Source of the DNA: Renibacterium sp.
GTDB lineage: Bacteria; Actinomycetota; Actinomycetes; Actinomycetales; Micrococcaceae
Reading direction: 5' to 3'
Length of the DNA: 64,000 nt
Assembly (NCBI GenBank): GCA_017419405.1
Contig: JAFOLH010000005.1
Span: 372,001-436,000 of the forward strand
Shown here piece by piece: positions 5,939 through 64,000 of this stretch; the stretch's first letter is position 1; every line of letters starts with the position of its first letter. The notes beneath the pieces were generated by a model. The model did no database searches. It saw only the letters and a program-made list of their open reading frames with translations, and was not told where the DNA came from. The position numbers were made by a program, and so were the translations under genes.

Positions 5939-6052
5939 TCAGTTCGCCAAGGGTTCACGTAACTCAGCTTTCCGTCCCAGTCACGCCGGTTATGCTGGCT
6001 GAACACAGCAAGGGGGCCCGGCGGGTCCCGCAAAGAGGAAGCGAGCGCTTGG

Positions 6053-6859: not shown

Positions 6860-6899
6860 GCGTGATCAGCTCAGTCGCCGTGCCCGGCAGAATTTGCGC

Positions 6900-8663
6900 T
6901 CATCGCGCGTCTCCGGTCTTGCGCTTCCTGGTAAGCACGACGCAGCCCAGACCTGTAACCAGGAGCAAAGCTGCTGCGACGAAAAGGTTCTGCCCATTTG
7001 CCAGCCCGGTTTCGGCCAGTTCTTCGGTAGCGGAGGCCGGGACCACGACGGCGGGCGAAGCCTGCACGCAGACTGTTTCGCTCGGTTCACCGAAGTCGCT
7101 TTGCCAAGCCTCCAGTTCTTCCGAAGCATCGAAGGAAGCCACGACGGTGTAGCAGCCGGGGTCAAGCAGTGGTCCGAACTCGGCGGTAGCCCCATCGACC
7201 GCAGGCACGGTCTTGGTTTGGAACAGCGGGCTCTGCTCCGGGATGACCGAAGTCTGCGCCGGGAGCTGGGGCAGCGGCCCGTACATGCGCAGGGTCAGCG
7301 GTACCGGGTTGCGCCCGGCAGCCGGCGGCAATCCGCTGACGCTGACCCGGTCGGTCACCGTGCTGCCCGGGGTCACCTCGTGGCTGGAGAGCTCAGTCGA
7401 CAGTGTGGGCGACCAGGTCAGCAGCGAGGTCTCAGAAGCTTTGCCGAAGACCGATTGCCACGGCTTGACGAAATCCCTGGCGCTTTCCGGTACCGCGCTG
7501 GCGGGATCGATCCGTTCAGTCCATACGTAGTAACCGGGTTCGGACACCGGGATCGACGCGGTCCGGTATTCCCCGGGACCGCTGACCAGACTGCGTACCG
7601 AACCCGCTTCCGGGGCGCCGTCCGGGATCTCGGCCGATTCCGAGGGCCGCTCCGGAAACGGACCCCACAGGGTGGAAACCACCTCCAGGCGGACCGGATC
7701 CCCGTTCATCGGGTCGGTCAGCCACCCGGTGCCGTCGGCGGCCGACACCGTCAGGTTGTCGTAAAGCGCGCCGGGCGCCGTGATCCGGGATTCTGAAGTC
7801 TGTGTGGCGACGAGCGGCTGGAAAGCCTGCTCCGCGGCCAAACGTGCGACCGCTTCGAGCTTGATGGTCACTCCGGTGGTAATCAGGCGCTGCGCTTTCG
7901 GCGAATTCGGAACCAGCCAGTTGATCGCGGCCGTCGGCGCGGCGGCCACTTCCGCACTGAGGCTTCCGACGCCGAATGCCAGACGTTGCAGGGGCAGTAC
8001 CTCCGGGCCGCTGCCGGTGACCCATGAGTACTCGGATCCAGCGGCAGCGAACTGAAGCGAGCCACCGGCCCGGGCTTGCATGCCCAAGCCGGGGACTTGG
8101 GTCCCCGCCGGAGTCAGCAGACTCGCCCGAGCTTCGCTTGCGGCCCGCAGGTCCAGTTCGATCCGGTACGGTCCGGCGTAGGCCAAGGACTGCTCGGTCA
8201 ACGACCGGCCGAGCGCAACCGCCGATTCCGGCAGGTCTGCTTTGCGGATGATTTCCTGCATGCCGGAGCTGCCCTATTCGCGGCCGGGCGAACTGAGCGC
8301 CCAGACGGAAAGCTGCACCGCCGCCGCGGTTTCATTGTCGTTGCTCGGTCCCCAGCGCAGCAGCAGGTAGGACAGTGCACCGTTTTGCTGCTCCGAAAGC
8401 GCGCTTCCGTCACTGCGCACGAAACCACCCGGCGAGCTCTCCCGGTAACCTCCGGAATAGCCGGGACCGAGCAGCTCGTAATCCGAGCAGTAGGCGATCA
8501 CGCCGTCGTCGTTCACTTGTTGCCCGACGAAGAGATTCGCCGAACCCAGGCCGGCGGCCAGGCGCCAGCCCGGGGCGACGGCTTGGACCGGCGCGATGGC
8601 CCAAGCCAGCAGCAATCCTGCCAGGGCAATCGCGGTGACGGTCGAACTCAAAAGTCGTTTCAC
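6900..8663 (-). pseudogene. Thioester-domain, LAxTG-anchored surface adhesin, interrupted by one in-frame TAG
   Basis: Read as one frame from GTG 8663 (GAAAGGA upstream) to TGA 6900, this is about 587 residues with a single amber codon at 8274-8276 (codon 130). The first part has a signal peptide (VKRLLSSTVTAIALAGLLLA) and a TQxA-type thioester domain: Cys59 in AYCSDYE and Gln117 in AAVQLSVWAL are the expected cross-link pair. After the TAG the same frame continues with stalk-like beta domains and ends in LAETG, a hydrophobic helix and RKRKTGDAR, a class-E-type sortase signal. A second segment could initiate at ATG 8261 but would lack an export signal. A Tyr or Gln codon probably mutated to TAG; sequencing error or suppression cannot be excluded. 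Confidence 0.85.
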
Positions 8664-8830
8664 GGGGTTCCTTTCAATCAGTGGCTTCACTCGGGTGTGC
8701 ACCCACTGTGCCAAGCGGGAAACCCGTGATCGGCGAAAATCCGTGACGGATGAAGCAATGTGTGGAAAGCAGCCGAAACCTGTGATTGTGGGGGAGTAGT
8801 GGGTTGCGCCGGCCGGCGTATGCTGATCGG

Positions 8831-9250
8831 ATGAGCCATCACAATGACCCTGAAACCATTCGTCGACTGCTCACCGGAAAGGGCCGCTGGGCCGTCGTCG
8901 GGCTGTCCACGAACACCGCCCGTCCGGCCCATTCGGTGGCGCGCTTCCTGCAGCAGGACCTCGGCGTGGAGATCATCCCGGTGAACCGCAAAGGAGAACC
9001 AGTGCACGGGGCTGCCGGATTCCGGACGCTCGAGGAGGTCCCCGGGGAGCTCGACGTGGTCGATTGCTTCGTCAATTCGGAGCGGGTCGGCGAGGTGGTC
9101 GATCAAGCGATCGCGGTTGGCGCCAAGGCAGTCTGGCTGCAGTTGGGCGTCATCGACGAAGCCGCCGCAGCCCGCGCCGCGGAGGCCGGGCTGGACGTGG
9201 TGATGGACACGTGCCCGGCAATTGAAGCGCCACGACTGGGAATCGTCTGA
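8831..9250 (+). CDS. CoA-binding protein (YccU-like Rossmann fold)
   Basis: A 139-residue single-domain protein of the CoA_binding_2 family. The Rossmann start RWAVVGLS, then IIPVNRKGEPVHG and the late AGLDVVMDTCPAIE are typical of YccU/YneT proteins; their biochemical role is unknown. I chose ATG 8831 (MSHHNDPETI) because homologues start there. No good Shine-Dalgarno sequence precedes it, and a TATGCT box ends 6 nt upstream (8819-8824), so a leaderless mRNA is possible but unproven. Confidence 0.8.
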   Translation: MSHHNDPETIRRLLTGKGRWAVVGLSTNTARPAHSVARFLQQDLGVEIIPVNRKGEPVHGAAGFRTLEEVPGELDVVDCFVNSERVGEVVDQAIAVGAKAVWLQLGVIDEAAAARAAEAGLDVVMDTCPAIEAPRLGIV

Positions 9251-9324
9251 ACTGTCCGCACTGACTGCTAATCTGCTGGAGTAGGGGGAATCTACACGTC
9301 AGATCACTCATCCGAGGTCGCCCA

Positions 9325-10164
9325 GTGCCACGTCATCTCTCATTCCGCACCCTGAAGCTGAAGTGGCTGTGGGCGCTTGTCGCTTTGCTGCTCGTGGTGG
9401 CATTGGCCTCCGGTGGAATTTGGGTCGCGCGGGCGCTCAGCGACGAGACCCCGGCGGCATCGGCGCCGGATGCCGCACCTGCCACCGCGGCGCCCCCGGT
9501 GCCGTCGGCAAGCCCGACGGCGAGTGCGCTGCCGACGAAGCCTGCGATCGCTCCGGATTTCAGTCTGCCGCCGATCGAAGACGGCATGGTCCCGGTACTG
9601 ACCAAAATTCCGACCGCGCAAAAGGTAGTCTTCCTGACCATCGACGACGGTGGGGCGAAGTTGCCCGAGGACGTCGCGCTGCTCCGGGCGAACAAGATCA
9701 AGGCGTCTTTGTTCTTGGCAAAAATGTTCATCGCCAACGATCCGGATTACTTCAAACAATTCCTGACCGATGGCAGCAAGATCGAAAACCACACGATGTC
9801 GCATCAACTCAATTTCATCAAGCTCGGCTATCAAGAGCAGAAGAACGAGATTTGCAAGATGGCGGACTTCGAAGAGCAGACCTACGGCCGGCGACCGGTG
9901 TTTTTCCGGCCGCCCGGCGGGCCTTACACCAATGCCATCCGCAAAGCCGCGGCAGAGTGCGGGATGAAGGCCATCGTCACCTGGGAGGCCAAGGCGAATG
10001 CCGGGCGAGTGGACTACCAGGTAGGCCAGGCATTACGGCCCGGAGACATCGTGTTGATGCATTTCCGGCCGGAATTCGCCCAGGACTTCCAGGCTTTCCT
10101 GGACGCGAAGAATGCGGCCGGACTCGAAGTGGTGTTGCTCGAAGATTTCCTGAAAGTGCCCTGA
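9325..10164 (+). CDS. Membrane-anchored polysaccharide deacetylase (NodB domain)
   Basis: A 279-residue type II membrane protein: basic start, one helix (about residues 14-36), an Ala/Pro/Ser linker to about residue 80, then a NodB-homology carbohydrate esterase 4 domain outside the cell. Motifs are TIDDGG (catalytic and metal Asp), HTMSH (metal His), RPPGG and LMHF. Such enzymes remove N-acetyl groups from peptidoglycan or other glycans and can raise lysozyme resistance; the substrate here is not determinable. Start is GTG 9325 with GAGG upstream. The next gene begins 2 nt after its stop. Confidence 0.85.
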   Translation: MPRHLSFRTLKLKWLWALVALLLVVALASGGIWVARALSDETPAASAPDAAPATAAPPVPSASPTASALPTKPAIAPDFSLPPIEDGMVPVLTKIPTAQKVVFLTIDDGGAKLPEDVALLRANKIKASLFLAKMFIANDPDYFKQFLTDGSKIENHTMSHQLNFIKLGYQEQKNEICKMADFEEQTYGRRPVFFRPPGGPYTNAIRKAAAECGMKAIVTWEAKANAGRVDYQVGQALRPGDIVLMHFRPEFAQDFQAFLDAKNAAGLEVVLLEDFLKVP

Positions 10165-10166
10165 CG

Positions 10167-10571
10167 ATGGATTCCGGAACCTTGCGGTCGCTGTGTTTGC
10201 GGCTTCCCGGCGCGTTCGAAGATTTTCCGTTCGGCCCGGATGCTTCGGTGATCAAGATCGCTCCCTCGGCCTCGGCCGGCAGCAACGTGGAGTTCAAGAT
10301 GTTCGCGCTCTTCCGGGCGGCCAAAACCCCGCTGAGCGTCAATCTCAAATGCGATCCAGCGCTGGCAGAACAGTTGCGGGCAGCACATCCGGAAATCACG
10401 CCGGGCTACCACATGAACAAAAAGCACTGGAACACCGTGGATTGCACGGGAGGTCTTTCGGAACAGACGATTGCCGATCTGATCGAAGATTCCTACGACC
10501 TGGTGGTTGCATCGCTGCCGCGTCCGCAGCGGGAAGCGCTTGGTTGGACCGGGTTGGTGGAGCGTGGCTGA
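10167..10571 (+). CDS. MmcQ/YjbR family protein
   Basis: A 134-residue protein of the MmcQ/YjbR (CyaY-like fold) family with the typical N-terminus LRSLCLRLPGAFEDFPFG, then VNLKCDPALAEQLRAAHP, PGYHMNKKHWNTV and a C-terminal SYDLVVASLP. The fold resembles DNA-binding double-wing proteins, but function is unknown. It is in a short operon: 2 nt after the deacetylase stop and overlapping the next gene by 8 nt. Confidence 0.85.
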   Translation: MDSGTLRSLCLRLPGAFEDFPFGPDASVIKIAPSASAGSNVEFKMFALFRAAKTPLSVNLKCDPALAEQLRAAHPEITPGYHMNKKHWNTVDCTGGLSEQTIADLIEDSYDLVVASLPRPQREALGWTGLVERG

Positions 10572-11091
10572 ACTGACCTACCCGCAGATCGGCTTGACCA
10601 GGGAACTCCTGCGCGATGGACCCGAATCGGTTGCGGGGTGGCCCGGCGGCAACCAGCGGGTTTTCGAACGGATCGAAGTGGGGCGCGGAGCCGAGAGCTT
10701 CGGCCGGCTCAGCAGTGGAATCCTGGACTGGGGCATTCAGGAAGCTGCCGGCTTGCGGCCGCGCGCGGAGGGTCCCGCGGTGCTTGGCGCACGGGTGGTC
10801 TGCGGCTTCGGCGTCGGTCCGATCCGTTTGCCGGTGCCCTGCGAAGTGGTTTGGTCCGAACGCGGCGAACGCTTCGGCGGCTTCGGTTACGGAACCCTGA
10901 CCGGCCATCCGGCAAGTGGCGAGGAGGCGTTTGCCGCTGAGCTGGACGAGGCCGATCGGGTGTGGTTCTCAGTACTCGCCTTCAGTCGTCCCCGACCCGG
11001 AATCTACACCCTGGCGGCGCCGGTGAGCCGGCTGATGCAAAAGTTCGTGACCCGGAAGTATTTGGTGGCGGCCAGGGCCTTGGCCGAGTAG
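10564..11091 (+). CDS. DUF1990 family protein
   Basis: About 175 residues from GTG 10564, which lies inside the previous gene and has GGTGGAG just upstream. The C-terminal half shows the family pattern: CEVVWSERGERFGGFGYGTL, TGHPASGEEAF, then FSVLAFSRP and a final YL-AARAL. DUF1990 proteins have a START/Bet v1-like fold and unknown ligand. It ends 24 nt before the arginase-fold gene, so the four genes 9325-12018 may be cotranscribed. Confidence 0.8.
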   Translation: MAELTYPQIGLTRELLRDGPESVAGWPGGNQRVFERIEVGRGAESFGRLSSGILDWGIQEAAGLRPRAEGPAVLGARVVCGFGVGPIRLPVPCEVVWSERGERFGGFGYGTLTGHPASGEEAFAAELDEADRVWFSVLAFSRPRPGIYTLAAPVSRLMQKFVTRKYLVAARALAE

Positions 11092-11115
11092 CCGGCCCGC
11101 GGAGAGGACATCCGG

Positions 11116-12018
11116 ATGTTGCACCGTGCTTTGACGGTTTTGGCCGCGCCCAGCAACTTGGGCCTGCGCCCGCCGGAACCCGGCTCGGTTCCCGGCGTGG
11201 TCAAAGCACCGGAGGCCTTGCGGGAAGCGGGCTTGCATGCCGGCTTGGTGTCCCGGGGTGCGAACGAGGCCGGTGTGGTCCTGTCCGGGCCGTATCGCGA
11301 CGATTGGCAGCCCGGATCCGGAAGGATCCGGAACCAGGAAGCCCTTTTGGAGCATGCGGCCAGCTTGGCCGCCCGGCTGGCCGGCTTGCTCGACGACGGA
11401 GCCTGGCCGCTGGTGCTGGGCGGGGATTGTTCGATTCTGCTCGGCATCGGGGTGGCCTTGAAGCAGCGCGGCAGGTTCGGCTTGATCCATCTGGACGGCC
11501 ACACCGATTTCCGGAATCCCGGGAATTCGGACGATTGCGCCTCCCTGGCCGGCGAGGACCTCGCCGCAGTCACCGGGAAACATTGGCCGCAGATCAGCGA
11601 TGTGGCCGGGTTGGGCCCGTATTTCGACTCGGCGGACGCGGTGCACGCGGGTTGCCGGGACGATGATGCGGAGCTCGACGAAGTCCGGTGCCATCTTGCC
11701 GGGCTGTTCACCAGCGCGCAGATCCGCCAGTCGCCGTCGGCCGTTGCCGGGGGCCTTCTCAACAGCCTGCCCAGCGGCTTGGACGGGGTCTGGTTGCAAC
11801 TCGACGTCGACATCCTCGACCCGGAGATCATGCCGGCGGTCGATGCTCCGGACCCGGATGGCATCGACTGGGTGCAGCTGGAAGCGCTGTTGGCAGTGCT
11901 TTTGCCGCGGGTCAGCGGAATGAGCTTGACCGTATTCGACCCGGAGCTGGACCCGGGCGGTTCGCTGGCCAGGAGGCTCAGCAGCATGCTGCTGAGCCTC
12001 CTGGCCGATGAATCCTGA
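11116..12018 (+). CDS. Arginase/agmatinase fold protein
   Basis: A 300-residue member of the ureohydrolase superfamily, which hydrolyses guanidino groups using two Mn ions. The metal motifs are LGGDCSILLG, HLDGHTDF and DVDILDP. In most true arginases and agmatinases the first motif is GGDHS and the second DAHxD; here the first His is Cys and the second is DGHTD, so metal binding is altered and the substrate may differ. Related GGDCS proteins are common in actinobacteria. The last codons lie in a perfect 40-bp palindrome. It is convergent with the sphingomyelinase. Confidence 0.75.
   Translation: MLHRALTVLAAPSNLGLRPPEPGSVPGVVKAPEALREAGLHAGLVSRGANEAGVVLSGPYRDDWQPGSGRIRNQEALLEHAASLAARLAGLLDDGAWPLVLGGDCSILLGIGVALKQRGRFGLIHLDGHTDFRNPGNSDDCASLAGEDLAAVTGKHWPQISDVAGLGPYFDSADAVHAGCRDDDAELDEVRCHLAGLFTSAQIRQSPSAVAGGLLNSLPSGLDGVWLQLDVDILDPEIMPAVDAPDPDGIDWVQLEALLAVLLPRVSGMSLTVFDPELDPGGSLARRLSSMLLSLLADES
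11967..12006. terminator. Perfect 40-bp palindrome inside the end of the arginase-fold gene
   Basis: Bases 11967-11986 are the exact reverse complement of 11987-12006, with no spacer. It encodes part of the C-terminal RLSSMLLSLLA region and sits 12 nt before the stop, between two convergent genes, so it probably works as a bidirectional terminator. Confidence 0.65.
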
Positions 12019-12033
12019 GGACCTGCAAGAAGC

Positions 12034-12990
12034 CTATTTGGAACCGAAGACCGGGTAGTGGTCGGAGTAGTCGGTGAAGGTCTGGCTGCCGGCCGACCAG
12101 GGTGCGGAATGCAGTTGACGGGTGTTGACCCGCCAGCTGCTCGGTGATCCGTAGCCCTTGATCGGCAAGACGTAGTCCAACTGTTCGGCCGGGTGGTCGC
12201 CGTAGAAGTAGTTCGCCATGGAATTGCCCGCGTAGTCGAAGGACGGTCCACCGCTGAACTCGGGCTGCACCGCGTTCAGCGTGCGGTAGACCGCGCTTTC
12301 CTCCGGGGTGCCGGCGATGACATTGAGATCGCCTACGACGAAAAGCGGCTGGTCTTTCGGGAAATTCTGGGCATCGATGAATCGCTTCATTTCTGCGAAT
12401 TGGCTTTTGCGCATCTCAGCGGGGGCGACCTTGCAGGTTGAATCTTCGGCCTGGGTGTGAGTTCCGATGACGTTGACCAAGCCCGCCGGCGTCTTGATTT
12501 GCGCGTAAGCGAAACCTTTGTTGGTCAGCGGCTCCACCATGCCGCAGCTGTCCTTGTAGATGAATTGCTTCTTCACGGTGATCGGCCAACGGCTGACGAT
12601 CGATACACCGCCGTCCTCTGGCGTCAGGGTTCCATAACTGCCCAAGGTCTCATCCCAGCCGGATTTGCTGCGTCCGATCCAGGGCGTTTGGTTGGGGTAT
12701 TCGGCGGCGAGATTCGTCTGCAGTCTTTCCGAACCGGTGTTGTCGAAGCCTTCTTGGAAAACCACGACGTCCTGTCCGGAAACGACTTTGTCCTTGGCGA
12801 TCAGATCTGCCCGCATGGCTTGGTCCCAGCCTGCGGCCGCAATCGGCGGCAGCATCCGCAGGTTCATCGAACCGATCTTCAGATCGTCGTAACTGAATCC
12901 GGATTTCTGGCCCGCTGCCTGAGCAGGGAGGCCGAAACCGGTGAGGCCGAGTCCGACGGCGGCGATGGCCGCAAGGCGTTTGAGTGTCAT
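12034..12990 (-). CDS. Secreted neutral sphingomyelinase (sphingomyelin phosphodiesterase)
   Basis: A 318-residue exported DNase I-fold phosphodiesterase. A signal peptide ends near AQAAG (26-27). It resembles Bacillus cereus sphingomyelinase, sharing EYPNQT, WDETLGSYG and LTPEDGGVSIVSRWP. The Mg-binding and catalytic residues line up: N43, E80 (FQEGFDN), H178 (IGTHTQAED), D221 and N223 (GDLN), and D310-H311 (DYSDHYP). It should cleave sphingomyelin to ceramide and phosphocholine. The membrane-inserting beta-hairpin just before DYSDHYP looks shorter than in the Bacillus enzyme. ATG 12990 is preferred, with GGAG close upstream; a TTG at 13002 is possible. TATACA is visible upstream as a possible -10. 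Confidence 0.88.
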   Translation of the reverse strand: MTLKRLAAIAAVGLGLTGFGLPAQAAGQKSGFSYDDLKIGSMNLRMLPPIAAAGWDQAMRADLIAKDKVVSGQDVVVFQEGFDNTGSERLQTNLAAEYPNQTPWIGRSKSGWDETLGSYGTLTPEDGGVSIVSRWPITVKKQFIYKDSCGMVEPLTNKGFAYAQIKTPAGLVNVIGTHTQAEDSTCKVAPAEMRKSQFAEMKRFIDAQNFPKDQPLFVVGDLNVIAGTPEESAVYRTLNAVQPEFSGGPSFDYAGNSMANYFYGDHPAEQLDYVLPIKGYGSPSSWRVNTRQLHSAPWSAGSQTFTDYSDHYPVFGSK

Positions 12991-13090
12991 GACTCCAGCC
13001 AATCGCCCAAAGGTGTATATACAGGTCCGCTCAGATTAACGCCGAAAGAACCGAAGCTGGGAATTTCCCGGACTCCAATCCCCGGCTTAA

Positions 13091-13126
13091 CGACGCGCGA
13101 GTGCACACGTGTGCACTCGCGCGTCG
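13091..13126 (-). terminator. Perfect 36-bp palindrome after purL
   Basis: Bases 13091-13108 and 13109-13126 are exact reverse complements. It lies 30 nt beyond the purL stop and upstream of the sphingomyelinase gene, so it most likely ends the purSQL transcript. There is no T-tract on the minus strand. Confidence 0.7.
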
Positions 13127-13155
13127 AAGAAGGGGTGAGCGGCGGTGAAGGCGGA

Positions 13156-15447
13156 TCAGCCGAAGTACTTCGGCAGGGTCCCCTCATGGGCTTCGCGCAG
13201 CTCGTCCAAGCTCAGTGTGAAAGCTCCCTGCACATCGAGCGAGCCGGATTCGGCATCGACCACGCCGAGGCGGAGGTGCTCGAAGCCCCGTGCGGTGCAC
13301 ATGTCGTTGAACCGGACCTCTTCGGAACGCGGCACCGAAACCAGCGCCCGGCCCTGGGACTCGGAGAACAAAGCCTCGAAAACCGAAATCCCATCGCGGG
13401 CAGCCAATTCGTCCAAGCCAACCCGGGCGCCGACGCCGAAGCGCAGCGAGGACTCGACCAGCGCCGCAGCCAAACCGCCTTCAGACAGGTCATGTGCCGC
13501 ATCGACCATGCCGTCACGGGAAGCGTTGATCAGGATCTCGGCCAAGGCCTTTTCCCGGCCCAAGTCGACAACTGGCGGCTGGCCACCGAGGTGCCCGCGC
13601 AGATTGGACCATTCCGAGCCATCCAATTCAGCCCGGGTGGTGCCCAGCAGGTAAATTGCCTGACCGTCTTCACGCCAACCGGACGGGGTGCGCCGAGCAA
13701 CGTCGTCGAACACGCCCAGCACGCCGACCACTGGGGTCGGATGGATCGGCACGCCGCCGGTCTGGTTGTACAAGGAGACGTTGCCGCCGGTGACCGGCAC
13801 ACCGAGTTCCTGGCAGGCATCAGCCAGCCCGGTCACCGATTCGGCAAACTGCCACATGACCTCGGGATCCTCCGGCGAGCCGAAGTTCAAGCAGTCAGTG
13901 ACGGCCAACGGACGCGCACCCGACGTCGCGACATTCCGGTAGGCCTCGGCCAGCGCCAATTTCGCACCTTCGCGCGGGTTCAGGTAGCAGTAGCGGCCGT
14001 TTGCGTCCGTGGACAAAGCCACACCCAGGCCGGTGCTTTCGTCCACCCGGATCACGCCGGCGTCGTCGGGCATGGCCTGTGCGGTGTTGCCCTGAACATA
14101 GCGATCGTACTGGTCGGTGACCCAGGACTTCGAGGCCATGTTCGGCGAGGACATCAGTTCGACGACGGCGGCCCCCAAGTCAGCGGGCACCTCACCTTTG
14201 AACGAGTCGGCTTGCAGAGCGTCGAGCCACTCCGGGCGGTGGAACGGCCGGTTGTACACCGGTCCGTCGTGCGCCACGGTGCGCGGATCGACGTCGACGA
14301 TCGTCTCGCCATCCCAGTCAATGATCAGCCGGCCGGTGTCGGTCACTTCGCCCAGCCAGGAGTATTCCACGTCCCACTTGGCCATCACGGCCTCAAAAGC
14401 CGCGACATTTTCCGGTGTGACGACCGCCATCATGCGTTCTTGCGATTCGGACATCAGGATTTCGCCCGGAGTCAGCGTTGGGTCGCGCAGCAGCACCGAG
14501 GTCAGCTCAACGTGCATGCCGCCTTCGCCGTTGGATGCCAGCTCGGAGGTGGCGCAGGAGATACCCGCGGCACCGAGGTCTTGGATGCCATCCACGATCG
14601 ATGCCTTGAACAGTTCCAGGCAGCACTCGATGAGCACTTTCTCCGCGAACGGATCGCCCACTTGAACCGCGGGCCGCTTGGACGGCTTAGCGTCGTCGAA
14701 CGACTCCGAGGCCAGCACCGAGGCGCCGCCAATGCCATCGCCACCGGTACGCGCACCGAACAGGACCACGCGATTGCCCACGCCGGAGGCATTGGCCAAG
14801 CGGATGTCCTCGTGCCGCAGCACGCCGACTGCGAGTGCGTTGACCAGCGGATTGCCCTGGTACACCGAGTCGAAAACCACTTCGCCACCGATATTCGGCA
14901 GGCCCAGCGAGTTGCCGTAGCCGCCGATGCCGGAGACGATGCCGTGCACCAAACGGGCGGTGTCCGGGTGGTCAATCGCACCGAAGCGCAGCGGATCCAT
15001 CACGGCAACCGGGCGGGCACCCATCGAGATGATGTCACGGACAATGCCGCCGATGCCGGTCGCGGCACCCTGGTAAGGCTCGACGAAGGACGGGTGGTTG
15101 TGCGATTCGACCTTGAAGGTCACCGCCCAACCGTCGCCAATGTCCACGACGCCGGCGTTCTCGCCGATGCCGACCAGCAGGTGCTCTTTCATCTCCGGAG
15201 TGACCTTGTCGCCGAACTGACGCAAGTGCACCTTGGAGGACTTGTAGGAGCAGTGCTCGCTCCACATGACCGAATACATCGCCAGCTCGGCAGCGGTGGG
15301 CCGGCGGCCCAGAATCTCGTTGATCCGAGCGAACTCATTGTCCTTCAGGCCCAGCTCGGCCCAGGGCAGCTCGGTTTCCGGAGTCGAAGCCGCGTTCGCG
15401 ACGGTATCGATGTTGAAACTGGTTTTCTCAGCAGAAGAGTTGGTCAC
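13156..15447 (-). CDS. purL: Phosphoribosylformylglycinamidine synthase subunit PurL
   Basis: The ATP-dependent large subunit of the small-type FGAM synthase (763 residues), which joins ammonia from PurQ to FGAR in step 4 of purine synthesis. Recognisable parts are [11 protein letters not shown] with the catalytic His, the first nucleotide-site region [29 protein letters not shown] (split motif), [13 protein letters not shown], and [13 protein letters not shown] in the second half. It is the last gene of purS-purQ-purL and overlaps purQ by 4 nt (ATGA), indicating translational coupling and complex assembly. Confidence 0.97.
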
Positions 15448-16196
15448 GCGCGGGCTCCCGAAAGAATCGTGTGCAGAACAGAGGAAAAGAAGCCCAAGCC
15501 GTCGGTGCCGGTGTGATCCGGCCCGAAGCCGGTTTCCACCGCGTGCTCCGGGTGCGGCATGAGTCCGACGACGTTGCCCGCGGCATTGGAGATGCCTGCG
15601 ATGTCGCGGCGGGATCCATTCGGGTTGAATCCGACATAGCGGAACACCACGCGGCCTTCAGCCTCCAGGGCGTCCAGTGTTTTTTCGTCCGCGATGTATT
15701 GGCCGTCCTGGTTCTTCAACGGAACGGTGATCTCTTGGCCGGCGTCGAAAGCGCTGGTCCAAGCGGTGGCCGCGTTTTCAACCCGCAGCACCTGATCCCG
15801 GCAGATGAACTTCAGATGATCGTTCTTCACCATCGAGCCCGGCAGCAGATGCGATTCAGTGAGGATCTGGAAGCCGTTGCAGATACCCAGCACCGGCAGC
15901 TTGGCCTCCGAATTCGCGGCGTCGATGACCTTGGCCATCAGCGGCGCGAAGCGCGAGATCGCACCAGCACGCAGGTAATCACCGTAGGAGAAACCGCCGG
16001 GGATCACCACTGCGTCCACGTCTTTCAGCTCGGCATCGGCGTGCCAGAGTTCGACGGCGGTCGCGCCGGAAAGCCGGACCGCGCGGGATGCGTCGCGGTC
16101 GTCGAGCGTGCCCGGAAAAGTAATGACGCCGACGCGTGCGCTGGACAGGTCAGCCGAAGACAGGTCAGTGGACAAATCAGTATTCAGCTCAGTCAT
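15444..16196 (-). CDS. purQ: Phosphoribosylformylglycinamidine synthase subunit PurQ
   Basis: Class I glutamine amidotransferase subunit (250 residues) that delivers ammonia to PurL. The nucleophile elbow is GICNGFQIL and the His-Glu pair is in MPHPEHAVE; the N-terminal core [15 protein letters not shown] is typical. Ahead of that core is an unusual Ser/Asp-rich extension ([14 protein letters not shown]) encoded by imperfect repeats, so the exact start is less certain. The start overlaps the purS stop by 8 nt and the stop overlaps purL by 4 nt. Confidence 0.96.
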
Positions 16197-16440
16197 CGAC
16201 GGCCTCGACCTTGACCACGTCTTCGATCACCGGGTTGGAGAGCAGGGTTTCGGCGGCTTCGCGGGCTTTGGCCAGCACGGCTTCGGTGATCTCGCCGTCG
16301 ACCGTCAGTTCAAAGCGCTTGCCTTGGCGGACGCCGCTGAATTCGGTGAAGCCGAGCCGGGGGAGCGCCCCGACAATGGCCTTACCCTGCGGATCGAGGA
16401 TTTCGGGTTTGAGCATGACATCGACAACGATCCGGGGCAT
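16189..16440 (-). CDS. purS: Phosphoribosylformylglycinamidine synthase subunit PurS
   Basis: The 83-residue structural subunit that bridges PurL and Pur[21 protein letters not shown] and the C-terminal VKVEAVDD match the family. ATG 16440 was chosen because AGGAGT lies upstream and homologues start there. It is first in the purSQL operon and overlaps purQ by 8 nt. Confidence 0.96.
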
Positions 16441-16765
16441 CCGGTGACTCCTGTTTTTCGAAGCGAGGGGTCGCGGAGGCTGGTGAACAGCGGGAAAACT
16501 GTGCCGTCTCACGCTGGTTCCGGTCCGGAGGCATCAGCGCTCCGCGAGCTTGCAACACTATTCTACCGGCAGCGGCGCGATGGATTGTCCGCCTCCGGAC
16601 GGGGGTCTGCGGGTTACCGCTTAACTTGCTGCGCGCAAGCTGTGTCTTCGCTATGCTTCGGGCAACTCCTTGAATCATGCAAGGGGTTCGAACGCTCTGT
16701 TTCTCCTGGTGAGACGGTGTTTTTGGGGGAACATGGTTCGCAAACCATTGAGAGGTGGTAGTCAC
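16441..16765. other. Divergent intergenic region, purS / subtilase
   Basis: 325 nt without a convincing gene. It should hold the purSQL promoter (minus) and the subtilase promoter (plus). A TATGCT box lies at 16652-16657. Two short inverted repeats are visible: CTTGC/GCAAG at 16625-16639 and CCTTG/CAAGG at 16668-16684. No -35 with normal spacing was found. Confidence 0.4.
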
Positions 16766-55217: not shown

Positions 55218-58076
55218 TTGCGCCCATTTTTGCGTCTTCTCGCACTGCCATTGTCCGCTTCTCTGCTCGTGGCCGTGGTCACCCCGGCAGCTGCCGGGGA
55301 CGAGATGCCGGCTGCTCCGAGCTCAATCTCATCCGCTTCCAGCGAGGAATCAGCCGCCTTGGTTGAAGCCAAGAAAGCCGGCGACCCAGTCGAGGTGGCA
55401 TCGTTGACTACCGCCACGGAGCAGGTCATGGCGATGCCTGACGGGACCTTTTCCAAGACCGTCAATACCAGCCCGGTTCGGATGGAGCAGGAAGGGCAGT
55501 GGAAGGATATCTCGACTGATCTGGTGATTCAGTCGGAGAATGGCCAGGCGATTTTGGCGCCAGAAATGACGCCTACGGACGTCAAATTCGGGGCAGGTGG
55601 GAATTCCCATGTGGCCACCATTAAAGATGACAAAGGCAACCAAATAGTCGAGTCCTGGCCATTCGGCGATTTGCCGACTCCGCTGATCGAGAAAAACACC
55701 GCAACCTACCGGAGTGTATTGCCCGGTGTCGATTTTATCCAGACCGCGCACGTCGACGGGCTCTCCCAGGTACTCAAGATTTATACTCCGGAGGCTGCCC
55801 GCGACCCGAGGGTCAAAGCGATGCGGCTCTACCTGGATTCGAATAATCTGAAAATCAAAGAGGACGGCTCAGGGGGTCTCAAGGCTGAGGCAGCTGACTC
55901 GGGAGAATCAGTTCTCCGGGCGGCGCAAGGCCAATGGTGGGATTCCACGTATCCTGACGCTTCAGCCGCCGAGCCCGGCGGTCCCGGAATCACCCGTCCG
56001 TTTTCCATCGACCTGAGCGGCCCGGAGGGTGCGAAGTCGCAAGGCTTCGGTATGGAGGATATTTTCCGCACCGAGAATCTGGTCTACCCGGTTTATGTGG
56101 ATCCGGACTGGAGCGCAGGCCGGGTGGCATTCCTCTATGTCGACAGCGGGTATGCGTCCACTTCCTATTGGAACGGGCGTTACACCGATGGCGCGATGAA
56201 AGTCGGTTACCTGCAACCGGCATGGGCAGCTGACGGACGACCGCATGTGACCCGTTCCTTTTGGCAGTTCGACACCCGGCCGATCAACGACAAAGCCATC
56301 TTCGCGGCCCAGTTCAAAGTCGTCGCCAAATGGGCGCCGTCCTGTCAGGCGCGGCCGGTGAGCGCTTGGGTCACCGGAGTGATCGAAGACGGGAATTCCT
56401 GGAACTCGCAGCCGGGGCAGTTGCGGAAACTGGACACGCAGAGCTTCGCCAAGGGCAAGGAAGGTTGTGAAGGGCAAGGCAGTGTCGCCTTCAATATGGC
56501 TGCGGCAAAGGATTGGTTGGCCGGTTCACCGCGATGGGTCGTGGGTCTTTATGCGGATAACGAAAGCGACCCCCTGGCCTGGAAGCAGTTTTACAACGAA
56601 GCGAGCATCACGATCCGTTACGGGACGCCACCGGCAAAGCCGATTCTGAACAGTATTTCGAGCTGCGCCTTTGCGTGCCTTGGCCAAGGCGTCAATGAAC
56701 CGCCGTTGACCAGGGACGCGCAGCCGACGTTCTCCTTGAGCTCCAGCGACCCCGATGGATCGGTCGACGGCGACATCGGCATCAACATGACGATCCGGGA
56801 CGGGCAGGGCCGCGCGGTTGCGCACACGCCCTGGACCAGCCAGAAGTTGCCTGGCGGCGGTGGTTCAACGACGTGGCGTGTGCCGACAAGGCTTTCCGAT
56901 GGTGTCTACAGCTTCGAAGCGCAGACTACGGATTCAACGTACCTCGCATCGACACCGATAAGTACCAGGTTCGAGGTTGCGACCACGGCACCTGCACCGC
57001 CCAAGATCACCAGCGGATCCGCGTATCTGAACAACAACCAGATCGACCCGGACGCCGTCGTCGGTGCCACCGAGTTGTCGTTCTCCTTGTCCAATGACAG
57101 CCAACGGCCGGTCAAAGGGTTCGTCTACGCCGTGACTGCTGCCGATGCCACGCCGCCCACCTTTCCCGCTGATAATGCAGCCCTGGGTTGCGGCCGGCGA
57201 ACTGGACCCTATGTGACGGTCTGCTTGACCGAACAATCGGGTACCAGCATCAAAGTTGCGGCGGTGGACGAGGCCTCCGTGCTGACCGCCTGGTCGTTCG
57301 ACCGGGCAGGGAATGTCGATCTGCCGCAGCAGGGTGCGGCCAAATCCGTTCCGTTCCGAGTCGGCCAAACTGCGCCGATGCCGGAAACCGTTCTTCCGCT
57401 GGAGCTGAAAAATGGCGCCAAGTGGGTTGGCATCCAAGCCAATCGCGGCATCCCCGCGAGTAACAGCTGTCAAGGGAGTGCTCCTGACGGGACGGAACCC
57501 CGTAACACTGTGAAGGTCCTCGAGCTCAGCGGATCAGGCCAGTATGCCCAGACTTCGGAACGGGCGGTCGACACTTCGCAGAGTTTCAGCACCAGCGGTT
57601 GGTTCTGCCCCTCCAGCCCCGCGGCGCCGTCGCCGCAGACGGTGATGGCCCAGATGAACGACTCCGGAAACGCGGCAGGGATGATTCGATTGGCCAGTGG
57701 AGGACGTTGGGAATTCGCGATGCCGACGGCGGGAACGCCGCCAGTGTTGGAGAGTGTCAGGACCGCTGAGGGAGCAGTGGCCGACGGCTGGTTTTTCGTC
57801 AACTCGATCTATGACCGGGTCAATCAGCAGCTGCGACTCACGGTCGCCGATTCACGGGTCAGAAACACCTGGATCATCGCTACGACTTCGGCCGTCCATC
57901 CTGGAGCGCAGCCGGACAAACCAGCGTTGTTGGGTGCTAGCAATCCAATGAATCCGGCGCTGGACGGATTCATCGGACAGATCTTCCAGCCGGTCTTCGC
58001 CCAGGGCGTGTTGATCGACGCTCAATTGACCAGTGCTTGGAACACCAAGCGCGGAGAGCAAGGTGTGCTCAAGTGA
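55218..58076 (+). CDS. Large secreted DNRLRE/LamG protein preceding an RHS gene
   Basis: A 952-residue exported protein. TTG 55218 is preferred (GAGG 6 nt upstream), opening RPFLRLLALPLSASLLVAVV, a signal peptide. The middle (about 270-480) has the DNRLRE-type beta domain seen beside Rhs genes (VAFLYVDSGYASTSYWNGRY, RSFWQFDTRPI, CQARPVSAWVT), then an Fn3-like part (about 510-590), and a C-terminal LamG-like domain (about 800-940, GSGQYAQTSERAVDTSQSFSTSGW). It is the usual upstream partner of actinobacterial RHS/YD proteins. Its stop overlaps the RHS start (GTGA). Confidence 0.75.
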   Translation: MRPFLRLLALPLSASLLVAVVTPAAAGDEMPAAPSSISSASSEESAALVEAKKAGDPVEVASLTTATEQVMAMPDGTFSKTVNTSPVRMEQEGQWKDISTDLVIQSENGQAILAPEMTPTDVKFGAGGNSHVATIKDDKGNQIVESWPFGDLPTPLIEKNTATYRSVLPGVDFIQTAHVDGLSQVLKIYTPEAARDPRVKAMRLYLDSNNLKIKEDGSGGLKAEAADSGESVLRAAQGQWWDSTYPDASAAEPGGPGITRPFSIDLSGPEGAKSQGFGMEDIFRTENLVYPVYVDPDWSAGRVAFLYVDSGYASTSYWNGRYTDGAMKVGYLQPAWAADGRPHVTRSFWQFDTRPINDKAIFAAQFKVVAKWAPSCQARPVSAWVTGVIEDGNSWNSQPGQLRKLDTQSFAKGKEGCEGQGSVAFNMAAAKDWLAGSPRWVVGLYADNESDPLAWKQFYNEASITIRYGTPPAKPILNSISSCAFACLGQGVNEPPLTRDAQPTFSLSSSDPDGSVDGDIGINMTIRDGQGRAVAHTPWTSQKLPGGGGSTTWRVPTRLSDGVYSFEAQTTDSTYLASTPISTRFEVATTAPAPPKITSGSAYLNNNQIDPDAVVGATELSFSLSNDSQRPVKGFVYAVTAADATPPTFPADNAALGCGRRTGPYVTVCLTEQSGTSIKVAAVDEASVLTAWSFDRAGNVDLPQQGAAKSVPFRVGQTAPMPETVLPLELKNGAKWVGIQANRGIPASNSCQGSAPDGTEPRNTVKVLELSGSGQYAQTSERAVDTSQSFSTSGWFCPSSPAAPSPQTVMAQMNDSGNAAGMIRLASGGRWEFAMPTAGTPPVLESVRTAEGAVADGWFFVNSIYDRVNQQLRLTVADSRVRNTWIIATTSAVHPGAQPDKPALLGASNPMNPALDGFIGQIFQPVFAQGVLIDAQLTSAWNTKRGEQGVLK

Positions 58077-58417
58077 ACTCGTTTTTCAACCGTTGCGTCA
58101 CTCGGATCAAGCAGTCGTCGCTGGCGGTGTTGGCTACCGCGGTGATCCTGAGCGGCATGGGTCCGATTCCGGACAGTGTCGCGATAGCCCCGTTGTCCCT
58201 CAACCCGTTCGAAACGGAACAGATCCCACCGGTTGCTGCTGTGCCCTGGGCCGGAGTCGGTACCCTGGCCGATCCGTTGACCTCGCCGGAAGTCGCCGGA
58301 AGTCGCCGGAAGCAAGGCCAGCGTCATAGGGGCGGCTGCTGCCAAGCTAGCCGGGCGGCCTTCAGGCGCCGCGAAGCTTGCTGCCTTGCCTGCGGCTCCG
58401 CAGGCAGGTTCGGATAA
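58073..58417 (+). pseudogene. N-terminal fragment of the frameshifted RHS gene (signal peptide)
   Basis: GTG 58073 overlaps the previous stop by 4 nt and opens a frame with a signal-peptide-like segment (SSLAVLATAVILSGMGPIPDS) ending at TAA 58415-58417. Its frame is lost in the 10-bp repeats at 58283-58312; after them the reading becomes Arg/Cys-rich nonsense. With one repeat less it would join the RHS body in frame. An in-frame ATG at 58037 was judged less likely. Confidence 0.8.
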
Positions 58418-61400
58418 AGGGGCGGGCGATGTCACGGCCTTACCGGGTGCTTCCGGCGGTGACTGGGGCGTCGCCGGGCAAACAGGTGCGTTCACCTGGT
58501 CCTACCCGTTCCCGATCCGAATTGCGACGGCGGGAGCCACGCCGTCCTTGTCGCTCTCCTACGATTCGAGCCGGGTCGATGGGCTGACCAGCGCCACCAA
58601 CAATCAGGCTTCGCCAGTGGGCGATGGCTGGCTGCTCGCCGGTGCCGGGCAGATTCGGCAAAAGTTCACTCCGTGTGCGGATCAAGGAGTTTCCGGTTCC
58701 TTCGACCTGTGCGGGAATCAAGGCGGGCAGTCCTTCACCGCGTCTTTCGCCGGTCGCTCCGGGCAGCTGGTCCAGGACGCTGCTTCTGGGACTTGGCGGA
58801 TGCAATCCGATGACAATACGCGCATCGAGTACAAGACCTCGCCGGGGTCCAACGGAACTTACGACGGCGGCTATTGGGAAGTGACCGACGCCGCCGGTAC
58901 CAAATACTTCTTCGGGCTCAACCGGCTGCCGAGTTGGTCAGCAGGCAAAGCGACGACCAATTCGGTGGACCGGGTGCCAGTGGGCGCGGCTTCAGCCGGC
59001 CAGCCATGTGCAGCAGCGTCGTTTGCGGCCAGTCTTTGCCAACAGGCCTGGGCGTGGAATCTCGACTACGTGGTTGATCCGAACGGAAACAGTCAGGCCT
59101 TCTACTACGCCCAAGACGTCAACTTCTACTCCAGCCGGGCCGGGCAAGGCCCTCGGATGGACTACATCCGGTCCAGCCGCCTGGTCCGGGTGGACTACAA
59201 CATGCGGGAAGGCAAGGAGCTCAACACGCCGGCACCGCTGAAAGTCGAGCTTGAGTACGCCGGGCGTTGCGACGGCATTGACTGTGCAAAGGGCAATGAT
59301 GTCCCCACAGGTTTCGATTGCTCGGCCACCGGCAACTGTGGCTCAGTTTCGCCTGCCTTCTACAGTGACAAGCGTTTGGCCAAGGTGACTTCCGGCACCC
59401 GCTTGGCGGACAAGTACCAGAGCGCGGATGTTTGGACGCTCAAACAGTCGATGCCGGATCCCGGTGACGGGACGCGACCTTCGCTGTGGCTCGGATCAGT
59501 GGAACAGCAAGGCGCAAATGCCGCCGCCGGTGCAGCAATCAGTACGCCTCCTCTGGTTTTCGGCGGGCAGACCTTGCAGAACCGGGTCTGGGTGGTCGAC
59601 GGCCAGGCGCCGTTGAATCGGTATCGGATTTCACAGATCAAACAGCCAGCCGGCGCGACCATCGCGGTATCTTACCTGGCTTCGGATTGTGCACCCGGAA
59701 GGCTTCCTGCTTCGCCGGAATCCAATACCCAGCGTTGCTTCCCGCAGTGGTGGGCTCCCACGGCACCGGTGGCAGAAAAGGCCCGGATGGACTATTTCAA
59801 TGTCTACCCGGTGTCTTCGGTAACCACCAATGGCGGTCCGGCGGGCGAAGGCTCTCAGGATCTGGTATCCCGTTTCGAGTACTTGGGGGCACCGGGTTGG
59901 AAATACGCTGCACCTAAAGTCGTGCAGTCCAACGGCAAATCCCAAGTGACCTGGTCTGTGGGCACTGGTTGGTCGAAAGTCCGGACCACCAAAGGAGCCC
60001 CGAGCACTCCTGCGCAAAACAGCGTGCTCGAAACGAGCTACCTCCGCGGTTTGGACGGGAGCCCGGCGGACAATTCCGGTGGGTTGAGAAACGTCAGTCT
60101 GACTGCAGTCGACGGTTCCGTGATCCGGGACTCGCCCTGGCTGGCCGGACGGGTTGTACAAACCCAAGCCTTCTTGAACGAAGGCGGCGCGCTGCTGACC
60201 TCGACGGTAACCGCACCCTGGTCATCGGCACCGACGGCAACGGCGAAGGACAGCCTGGGCAAGCTGGAGTCCCGGCAGCATGGCATCGCGGCGGTGACCA
60301 CTTTGGAAAACCAGCCCGCTGGAGGGGCGCGGGTCAGCAAGACCAGCAACGTCTTCGACAGCTTGGGCCGTGTGGTTGCGGTGTCCGCTACCGGGGACCC
60401 GGTGAGCGGGTCGGAAGGCACCTGTACGGCGACGGTATTTGCCGAGAACCGGGCCGCGAACCTTCTCAACCTGCCGGCCAGCAATACGACGCGCGCGGGC
60501 CAGTGCGGTCCGGACGGCAACTCGACCGGGACGCTTCTTGCGGCCAGCCGGGTGCTTTACGATAGCTCGTCGTCGGCCATTCCGGGAAGCGCCGGGTACC
60601 TGGCCCCGCAGAAGGGCAATCCGAGCCGTACGGATAAGGCCAAATCGGTCGATGGTGGACAAGTCATTTGGCAGAACGGCTCAGTTCGGACATTCGATGC
60701 GTTGGGTCGGACGATTTCGGAAACCGATTCCAGCACCGGAACCCCTCGGACCATCTCGGTCAGCTATGCCCCTGCGGAGGGGCCGGTGGCCGAAGTCAGC
60801 GCACGCAACCCCTTGGGCTGGACCACAACCCAGTCGTTCGATCCGGTGCGCGGAAAACTGCTGAAATCAGTTGACGCGAACGGGGCGGTGACCAGCTACG
60901 GCTACGATGCCGCCGGTCAGCAGACCGGGATGTGGGATCCCTCCCGACCGCAGGACAAAAACCCCACTCCGACCGCGGGAACGGCCTACCGACTCTCGCA
61001 GACTGAACCGTCCTGGACCCGCACGGACCAGATCAATGGCAGAGGCCAGACGATCAGCAGTTTTGCGGTGTTCGACGGACTGGGGCGTTTGCGGCAGACC
61101 CAACGCCCCTCGCCGGCCGGTGGCACGATCGCCAGTGATGTTCTGTACAACGGTTCCGGGGATCAGCGATTGGTCCGAAACCCCTATTACCTGTCCAGCA
61201 ATCCGGACGGGGTGCTGCGGATTCCAGCGGTGGCGGTTCCATCCTCAACCGAGTTCGAGTACGACGGAGTCGGTCGGCCGACGCGGATCAGGGCTTTGGC
61301 GAACGACAACCAGGAACAATGGGTCACGACGTTCGGCTACCAGGGCCTGAACGTGGAGACGGTCTTCGGCCCTGCCGGTGAGGCGGCCAGACGTCTGACC

Positions 61401-64000
61401 AAGGACGTATCTGGGAATGTGGTCAAACGGGAACAATTCCGCGGGCCCGATGTTTCCGGTGCTGCCGACGTGACTTCGTACACTTTCGATCCGCTGCAAC
61501 GGATGACTTCGATGTCCGATCCGGCAGGCAATGGATGGACGTGGTCTTACGATCTGCTGGGCAATGAACTGAGCAGCAAAGATCCGGACAGCGGCGTTTC
61601 GACGAGCAGTTACGACGGCGCCGGCCGCTTGGCCTCGGTACGGGATTCGAACGGAACCATCGGCTCGTACCGGTACGACGTGCTGGACCGGATGGTCGAA
61701 TACCAGATCGCTGAAGCCGGGAAATCGGCCAAGACTTTGGTTTCCAAGGTGTACGACTCGGAGAAGAAGGGACTGCAGAGTTCCAGTACCCGGTTCAACG
61801 GATCGAACTTCGACCAACCGGTGACGGTTCGGCAATCCGGATTCACGGTTTTGAACCAGCCGACCAAGAGCAGCTTGGAGGTTCCAGGCAGTGCCGCGCA
61901 GCTGGGCGGCAAATACGACACCTCGGCGAGCTATACCAGGACCGGGAAGATCGCCAGGGTCGATGTGCCCAAAATCGGCGCCTTGCCCGGCGAAGAGCTG
62001 TATTACAGTTACGACTCATTGGACAATCCGGCGTCTCTGGACAACCAGGACTGGGACATGTACGCGGGCAACACGCAATACAACCAGCTCGGTTGGTTGT
62101 CCGGATATCAACAGACCGACGACCAGCTATACACCACATCGCCCACCAATGGGCTGAACCGGGTGTCCTTCGTCTGGGATGCCACGACCGCACGCCTGAC
62201 CAAGACTACGGCGACCAACACCACGAGATCGCGTTGGACTTCCTTGGGCGAGACCAGCTACGGCTACGCACCGTCCGGCAGGCTCACGTCTCGGACGACT
62301 GAGGCTGCGGCGGGTGGTGGAGCGGATGCGGCTTCCGGAGGCACCGACCGGCAGTGCTACAACTACGACTATGCCGGGCGGTTGAGCCAGGTTTGGACGC
62401 CGGGCAGTGCAGAGTGTTCGGCAGGCTTCGACCCCCAGGCATTGGGCGGTCCGGCGGCGTACGCCCAGCAGTTCAGTTACACCTTGAGCGGTGCGCGTTC
62501 CCAGGTGAAGCGTTTTTCCGGAAGCGGAGATGTGGTTTCCACTGAGGATTACCAGTACCCGGCGGCGGGTTCGGCGGGTGCCAACCAGGTGCAGAAGATC
62601 GTGGCCACGGCGGCCAACGGCAGCAAAACGGACCAGGTTTTCGGCTGGGATGCTTCCGGCAGGATGGTTGACCGGGCTGGGCAGAGGCTCAGCTACACGG
62701 CGGACGGGTTGTTGCTCAATTCAGTGGGGCAGAGCCAAGTTCCGGCGAATCCGAATTTCAGTCCGACGCTGGGCGGGACGTCCGCAGCCAATTCTCCGGG
62801 GGACGAGCGCTGGTACACGGCCGAAGGTGATCTGGTATTGGTCAAGGACAGCACCGGGACCACTCTGACTGTGGACAGCGCGACCGTGCACGCGGACAAG
62901 AGCGGCAAGACTTCGGGCACCCGAACCTACGCCTTCGCCGGCAAGAACGTGGCACAGCGGGTCACGGTGCCGGGCGCGACCGGTGCCAACGCGACGGTGA
63001 AGCAGTTCATGGTTTCGGATTCGGTCAACACCGGCCAGGTGCTTACCGGGCCGAGTACTGGTTCTGCTGGTATCTCGGTTCGGACCCGGTATACGGATCC
63101 GATGGGGTTGCAGCGCGGCTCGGTGCAGAGCGCGGCGATTGCAAGTAATGGCAGCAACCCTGAGGGGTTCGGGGCGGCCAACGGGTACATCGGCGGATTG
63201 GTCGACGCCGGCAGCGGGCTGACGCATCTGGGTGCCCGGGACCTGGACCCGGTGACCGGTATATTTACTGCCCCGGACCCGATACTGGATGTGAGCAACG
63301 CGAACCAGTTCATGCCGTATGCGTATTCGGAGAACGATCCAATCAACAAGTCGGATCCGTCGGGGTTGTTTGCGTTCTTGATCCCGCTCATCCCCTACAT
63401 TCCATACATAGTCGCCGGGATCAAAGCAGCGCTCTACACGACGGCTTTGGTGGGGGCCGCAGCGGTGGCAACTGAAGGCATCAATCGGTGGCAGCAGAGC
63501 TACAGATTCCCGTCATCCAATGGAACGGGCGCAGCAGCTGCGGGTGCCGGTGCTATCACCGCTGCAGCTGGGGCTGTATTGAATTTCGGTTCAGTATCGG
63601 TCAGCAGCTCATCTGCTGCGAGTAATGGATATCGGGCTCCTTCCGGTTACCGGGCACCGAGCGGATATCGAGGCCCGGCCGGGTATCGCGGACCGGCATC
63701 TGCCGGTGGTTCAGGCGCTATTGCTAACCAGGCCGCTGCCTTGGCGGCGGCTGCCGCAGCCGCTGCGGCCGCTGAAGCAGCGCGAATAGCCGCCATGATC
63801 GAAGCGAATCGGGTGGCGGCGGCACAGAGTTTGGCTGCTGTGAACGGTCAGCGGTTGAATAATGAGTCAGCGAATGCGGGTGCTGCCGCGAGCGGTGCGG
63901 CGGCGGGCGGTGCCGCTGCGGCCAGCGGCATGCCGGATCCTGACGATGATTGGACCGACCTATTTAGATTTGTGTCTCACCCGGAAGCTGAAGATATTGC
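58281..64000 (+). CDS. RHS/YD-repeat protein body, likely polymorphic toxin, 3' end beyond window
   Basis: An uninterrupted frame from the stop at 58278-58280 to the end of the window (over 1,900 codons), in a different frame from the GTG 58073 start. It begins with an Ala-rich linker, then a SpvB/TcB-like opening (GDWGVAGQTGAFTWSYPFPI, YDSSRVDG), many YD repeats (YGYDAAGQ, FDALGRTISETD, YDGAGRLASV), and the RHS core end NGYIGGLVDAGSGLTHLGARDLDPVTG followed by SENDPINKSDPSGL. After that a hydrophobic segment (IPYIVAGIKAALYTTALVGAAAVA), GYRAPS repeats and an Ala-rich helix begin the variable C-terminal region. The toxin domain, if any, and an immunity gene lie beyond the window. Confidence 0.85.
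58283..58312 (+). repeat. Three tandem copies of a 10-bp unit causing a frameshift
   Basis: TCGCCGGAAG is repeated three times with no differences (58283-58292, 58293-58302, 58303-58312). Because 10 is not a multiple of three, changing the copy number by one changes the frame. Two copies give ...TSPEVAGSKASVIG..., which continues into the long RHS frame. Confidence 0.95.
63627..63698 (+). repeat. Four 18-bp repeats in the RHS C-terminal region
   Basis: Four degenerate 18-nt units encode GYRAPS, GYRAPS, GYRGPA and GYRGPA, directly before a poly-Ala/Gly stretch. They form a Tyr/Arg/Pro-rich linker between the RHS cage end and the tail. Confidence 0.85.

What the first reader, a model, noticed from the sequence alone, without database searches (positions are those of the whole stretch)
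58073..64000. RHS toxin-like gene switched out of frame by a 10-bp triplication
Three identical 10-bp units at 58283-58312 separate a coupled start and signal peptide (frame of 58073) from a >5.6-kb RHS frame. Removing one copy rejoins them exactly at SPEVAGSKAS. A tandem unit not divisible by three at the 5' end of a surface/toxin gene is what a phase-variable contingency locus looks like; it could also be a recent inactivating slip or an assembly error. Slippage-controlled RHS expression in an actinobacterium would be new to me.
Basis: partly seen in the sequence, partly recalled or inferred. Interest (0 to 1): 0.75.

Follow-up and report, generated by a model that had tools for sequence, protein, structure and literature searches.

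The report
RHS toxin gene split by repeat
A bacterium that likely belongs to Psychromicrobium carries a large RHS-family gene, predicted to make a toxin, whose start lies out of reading frame with its body across three identical 10-base units; this is likely a recent slip that would silence the protein and could flip back only rarely, not a demonstrated on-off switch.

Summary
Three perfect TCGCCGGAAG units (58283-58312) lie between a GTG start that overlaps the upstream gene's stop and a 1988-codon RHS frame running past the window (to about 64247); the two frames are out of register. The array is far beyond chance and the only one of its class in about 478 kb examined of this 3.76-Mb genome. 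It is unlikely to be an assembly slip: the 114-residue product of this exact arrangement is recorded in 17 contigs other than the window's. The RHS body shows no decay compared with its two closest relatives. The switch reading is only partly supported: in 8 of 8 relatives with the same 5' end the frame is uninterrupted and has no such array, no second array length was seen, and the one search that might have shown an in-frame copy of this allele was blind to it. A same-species genome lacks the whole island of about 11.5 kb. Best reading: a recent slippage expansion that would silence export of an otherwise intact polymorphic toxin, reversible in principle but probably rarely. An evolved phase-variable locus remains possible and unproven.

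The parts
55218..58076 (+). Upstream 952-aa ORF; relatives are named LamG-like or hypothetical secreted-type proteins; its stop overlaps the start of the next frame
   Evidence: relatives of it lie directly upstream of the RHS gene in 8 of 8 loci; no Pfam or NCBIfam match of its own
58073..58417 (+). ORF1: coupled GTG start, leader read by eye as a Sec signal peptide, 114 codons, then TAA; passes through the array and out of the RHS frame
   Evidence: identical product (GTG read as M) recorded in 17 contigs, longest 19,109 bases
58283..58312 (+). Tandem array, 3 perfect copies of TCGCCGGAAG
58281..64000 (+). RHS frame, 1988 codons open, continues beyond the window to about 64247 (L004:14248); RHS repeats, RHS core, variable C-terminal tip without known family
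   Evidence: no decay against P0001 and P0002; tip (L005:425-745) shared with P0001 and P0021, different in P0002
54975..64000 (.). Strain-variable island (goes on beyond the window, about 11.5 kb in all, to about L004:16740) absent from a same-species genome
   Evidence: GC 0.59 against 0.66-0.67 of the flanks; candidate immunity ORF at L005:757-1119, 8 bases after the RHS stop, lies beyond the window

Best explanation
The coupled start of an RHS-family gene is out of reading frame with its 1988-codon body across a perfect 3 x 10-bp array, which likely arose by a recent slippage expansion that would silence export of a predicted polymorphic toxin and would reverse only rarely. Shown: the array, the two frames, the overlapping start, the intact body, uninterrupted relatives, and other contigs with the same 114-aa product. 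Inferred: that ribosomes from the coupled start end at TAA 58415-58417; that internal starts could at most give an RHS protein without leader; that the expansion is recent; that reversal occurs, at rates published for short repeats in other bacteria (about 1e-9 to 1e-5 per division; one scheme places 3 or more copies of a 5-base unit higher).
For: Array and frames. 8 of 8 relatives with the whole 5' end have one uninterrupted frame from start to RHS body and no perfect array of 3 or more copies there; the two nearest proteins read on through the linker too. Only this state of the allele is seen: 1 protein among 26 candidates, in 17 contigs. No other array of this class in 478.5 kb of the genome, so no sign of a genome habit of repeat switches in that part. 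Body not decayed: 13 of 244 invariant columns changed against 12 and 12 in P0001 and P0002, so the break is young or hardly costly. Strain-variable island.
Against: An off-phase switch looks identical in one genome. The intact body is equally expected if the gene is sometimes on. One search listed nothing above 88% identity although the window's own contig is in that collection, so it was blind to this allele and says nothing about in-frame copies. If the 17 contigs come from different samples, the state is widespread, which fits a single fresh slip less well. Two internal starts in the RHS frame (TTG 58548, ATG 59157) have SD-like matches as long as that of the coupled start (4 bases), so some RHS protein without leader may still be made.
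Confidence: 0.6

Rival explanations
1. A phase-variable contingency locus: gain or loss of 10-bp units during replication would switch the RHS protein between made and not made, so that only part of a clone deploys the toxin.
For: Unit not divisible by three, directly after the leader, far beyond chance; body not decayed; state recorded in 17 other contigs, so it persists.
Against: No array at this place in 8 of 8 relatives, nor in 3 other RHS genes of the genus with a readable 5' end; no second array length found; only three copies. Copy number between siblings could not be compared because G003 lacks the locus.
Confidence: 0.25
2. Sequencing or assembly error: the true genome has another array length.
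For: Draft assembly of 17 contigs; reads were not available.
Against: A 30-bp array is shorter than common reads, and 17 contigs other than the window's encode the identical 114-aa product, although their samples are hidden and may include reads of the same isolate.
Confidence: 0.04
3. The split is bypassed or used: an internal start, ribosomal frameshifting or hopping makes RHS protein in spite of the array, or the 114-aa product has a role of its own.
For: The frames overlap for about 135 bases; internal starts exist, two with a 4-base SD-like match.
Against: 8 of 8 relatives need no recoding; an internal start gives no leader; the single strand around the array folds no better than shuffles (z 0.76); ORF1's tail has no relative other than itself among 26 candidates.
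Confidence: 0.06

Closest known systems
RHS polymorphic toxins with exchangeable C-terminal tips (RHS_repeat PF05593, Rhs_assc_core TIGR03696)
   Same: RHS repeats and core, variable tip followed at once by a small ORF, strain-variable island
   Different: Start and leader out of frame with the body; in 8 of 8 relatives they are one frame. Toxicity and immunity untested.
Silent (orphan) Rhs toxin gene of Salmonella Typhimurium LT2, switched on by recombination (PMC3967940, abstract and outline seen)
   Same: A toxin frame without its own start and export signal, kept intact
   Different: There a fragment is fused to a main rhs gene by recombination; here leader and body lie side by side, separated by frame alone, and the own genome has one RHS core match
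Tandem-duplication phase variation of pneumococcal capsule genes (cap3A, cap8E, tts; recalled, seen cited in PMC4022640, passages)
   Same: A short perfect tandem repeat puts a reading frame out of register and could excise
   Different: There off and on variants were isolated; here one state only
Reversible silencing by frameshift indels in Mycobacterium tuberculosis (PMC8339072, passages) and homopolymer phase variation in Gardnerella (PMC11287997, passages)
   Same: Actinobacterial genes put out of frame by indels that may later be compensated
   Different: Those rest on many isolates or on colony variants; here one strain, a 10-bp unit and an RHS gene

Membership tests
RHS polymorphic toxin | RHS/YD repeats and RHS-associated core | tested here: met
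   PF05593 7.9e-18; TIGR03696 7.6e-12, TIGR01643 7e-10
RHS polymorphic toxin | Exchangeable C-terminal tip on a conserved body | tested here: met
   P0002 has an 88%-identical body but a different tail; P0001 and P0021 share the window's tip
RHS polymorphic toxin | Cognate immunity gene directly downstream | tested here: inconclusive
   120-aa ORF 8 bases after the RHS stop; no family match above a cut-off; function not testable here
RHS polymorphic toxin | Tip is toxic | not testable with these tools
   No match above a cut-off in Pfam or NCBIfam, none in PDB sequences at E up to 1
Phase-variable (contingency) locus | Repeat unit not divisible by three, inside the 5' part of a coding frame | tested here: met
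Phase-variable (contingency) locus | Array length differs between cells, siblings or strains | tested here: inconclusive
   Only one length seen; sibling G003 lacks the locus; blind to this allele; no reads
Phase-variable (contingency) locus | Repeat number high enough for frequent slippage | tested here: inconclusive
   3 copies of 10 bp; PMC4235727 Table 1 has no such class; it rates 2 copies of a 5-base unit mutable and 3 or more hypermutable
Phase-variable (contingency) locus | Array kept in relatives of the gene (usual, not strictly required) | tested here: not met
   0 of 8 relatives have a perfect array of 3 or more copies at the 5' end
Old pseudogene | Decay of the body | tested here: not met
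   13 of 244 invariant columns changed, against 12 and 12 in intact relatives; no gaps; no further stop in 1988 codons

The most novel reading that the evidence does not exclude
A tandem-repeat phase switch on the leader of an actinobacterial RHS toxin: slippage of a 10-bp array decides which cells of a clone export the toxin, while the rest keep the gene in reserve.
Probability: 0.2. Interest if true: 0.7.

Novelty: new member of a known kind. Interest (0 to 1): 0.38.

Why it matters
If it switches, it would be a simple, countable toggle on a large predicted toxin of a Gram-positive bacterium, and directly testable by reading the array in single colonies. If it does not, it is a clean case of a polymorphic toxin gene put out of frame very recently by a short tandem expansion inside a strain-variable island, useful for asking how often such genes go silent.

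Tried and rejected
Assembly error: judged unlikely, because 17 contigs other than the window's encode the identical 114-aa product.

Old pseudogene: rejected, no decay. At looser thresholds the window has slightly more changes than P0001 and P0002 (30 against 28 and 27 of 369 columns; 55 against 49 and 50 of 494), too small a difference to build on.

Conserved array or recoding: rejected. A loose TRF run on seven relatives did show short imperfect repeats in some linkers (for example 9 bp x 2.4 and 11 bp x 1.9, and 5 bp x 3.8 with many indels), none perfect with 3 or more copies.

Hairpin-driven slippage: no unusual folding of the strand (z 0.76).

Tip identity: no match above a cut-off in Pfam or NCBIfam, none in PDB sequences at E up to 1. 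No structure prediction was run.

The five that paired RHS with phase variation, tandem repeats or duplication, or frameshift (39, 51, 57, 58, 64) listed 8 papers; passages of three were seen and none of these describes a repeat-switched RHS gene; the other five I saw as listings only. Most subscription papers are not held.

Rows dropped before counting: G262:C135 (contig edge, no 5' end) and G126 (weak partial match) are not among the 8 relatives. In one search, L007 (contig edge) and L056 (1090-codon frame without a recognisable leader) hold no true 5' end and are not counted.

Own slips: one search read five minus-strand loci the wrong way round and was repeated. My note gives ORF1's stop as TGA; it is TAA.

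Full report
What is there. At 58283-58312 the sequence holds three perfect copies of TCGCCGGAAG. Upstream, a 952-aa ORF (55218-58076) ends in a TGA that overlaps a GTG at 58073. From that GTG runs a 114-codon frame with a basic start, a hydrophobic stretch and a small-residue motif, read by eye as a Sec signal peptide (no predictor was used). It passes through the array and stops at TAA 58415-58417. The RHS frame is a different one: TGA at 58278-58280, then 1988 open codons to about window 64247, beyond the window's end. It matches RHS_repeat (7.9e-18), Rhs_assc_core (7.6e-12) and YD repeats (7e-10). After an alanine-rich linker comes a tip of about 100 residues without known family, and 8 bases after the stop a 120-aa ORF, a candidate immunity gene. 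P0002, with an 88%-identical body, has another tail, while P0001 and P0021 share the window's tip: the usual pattern of exchanged tips.

Chance and artefact. Base composition predicts about 3e-7 such arrays per 64 kb. In 478,501 bases of the window's own genome (window, L005 and 20 stretches of 20 kb) it is the only perfect array with a unit of 7 or more and 3 or more copies; five first-order Markov resamplings gave none. A search with the 114-aa product found one protein among 26 candidates, identical except that its GTG start is read as M; it stands for 17 contigs, the longest of 19,109 bases. Another array length would give another product, and the window's own contig has 566,918 bases, so these are other contigs with the same array. 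Their samples are hidden and may include reads of the same isolate. An assembly slip is therefore unlikely.

Relatives. A search of 395 genomes of the family found 10 with a match. Eight besides the window's own have the whole 5' end: G001, G024, G025, G052, G174, G215, G238 and G262. In 8 of 8, start, leader, linker and RHS frame are one frame without a stop. In 6 of 8 the start overlaps the stop of a relative of the upstream gene; in the other two it lies 28 and 48 bases on. None of the 8 has a perfect array of 3 or more copies between -300 and +900 of the start, nor have three other RHS genes of the genus with a readable 5' end (one in G003, two in G005). Short imperfect repeats do occur in some of the linkers. 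The two nearest proteins, P0001 (84%) and P0002 (88%), also read on through this linker. Intact relatives thus exist, and the array is, as far as seen, private to this allele.

Is the body decaying? In an alignment with 40 relatives, at 244 core columns invariant among 38 of them, the window deviates at 13, P0001 at 12 and P0002 at 12, without gaps; at looser thresholds the window is slightly higher (30 against 28 and 27 of 369; 55 against 49 and 50 of 494). Of 1720 sites, changes unique to one of the three number 90 (window), 133 (P0001) and 68 (P0002). The body has evolved like an intact gene. Either the split is recent or the gene is still used at times; this test cannot tell which.

Setting. 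The genus is likely Psychromicrobium: G001, of the same genus, has a contig of 3,595,718 bases, the length listed for the Psychromicrobium lacuslunae proteins P0020 and P0134. A genome of the same species (G003) has the flanks at 98-99% identity but about 215 bases in place of about 11.8 kb with both genes, the candidate immunity gene and a DUF6984 gene. GC is 0.59 in the island and 0.66-0.67 on both sides. A repeat of about 60-130 bases lies at both edges. Because the island is strain-variable, no sibling with the same allele was at hand to compare array lengths.

How it most likely works. A ribosome starting at the coupled GTG would make the 114-aa product and stop, so the RHS protein would not be exported. 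Internal starts exist in the RHS frame; two of them (TTG 58548, ATG 59157) have an SD-like match as long as that of the coupled start (4 bases), the first one (TTG 58386) 3 bases. Any protein from them would lack the leader. The array most likely grew by slippage. As the unit is not divisible by three, a gain or loss of a unit changes the frame relation, so reversal is possible in principle. For rates I rely on other bacteria: PMC4235727, section 3.1 with Table 1 (read whole), gives 1e-9 to 1e-7 per division for proto-mutable and 1e-7 to 1e-5 for mutable repeats, and places 3 or more copies of a 5-base unit among the hypermutable (above 1e-5); PMC4022640 (passages) expects at most about 1e-5 for a 9-bp insertion. 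Where three copies of 10 bp in this organism fall is not known.

Against my reading. An off-phase switch looks the same in one genome. One search listed no protein above 88% identity, yet the window's own RHS frame might be expected there: its contig is in that collection, since P0122 has a longest contig of 566,918. That search is thus blind to this allele and says nothing about in-frame copies. Seventeen contigs, if from different samples, would also mean that the state has spread or persisted, which a fresh slip explains less well.

Known kinds. Silent RHS toxin fragments can be switched on by recombination (PMC3967940, abstract). Tandem duplications switch pneumococcal capsule genes (recalled works, seen cited). 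Frameshift indels are proposed as reversible silencing in Mycobacterium tuberculosis (PMC8339072, passages), and homopolymer-based phase variation is reported in Gardnerella, an actinobacterium (PMC11287997, passages). The ingredients are known; a repeat switch on an RHS gene was not met in the searches I made.

Noticed in passing
window about 54975 to beyond 64000 (L004 about 4975-16740): The RHS gene, its upstream partner, the candidate immunity gene and a DUF6984 gene form an island of lower GC that is absent from a same-species genome (G003); a repeat of about 60-130 bases lies at both edges and elsewhere nearby.
   Followed up: partly
L005:425-745 (beyond the window's end, about 63924-64244): C-terminal tip of about 100 residues without a known family, shared with P0001 and with P0021 of an Arthrobacter whose RHS body is much more distant.
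   Followed up: partly
63662-63697: An 18-bp repeat encoding GYR-type hexapeptides in the linker before the tip; its unit is divisible by three, so its length can vary without changing the frame.
   Followed up: no
G003:C1:48555 and C1:549370; G005:C2:219498 and C2:927655: The same-species genome and another of the genus carry two other RHS core matches each; the three with a readable 5' end have no array there.
   Followed up: partly
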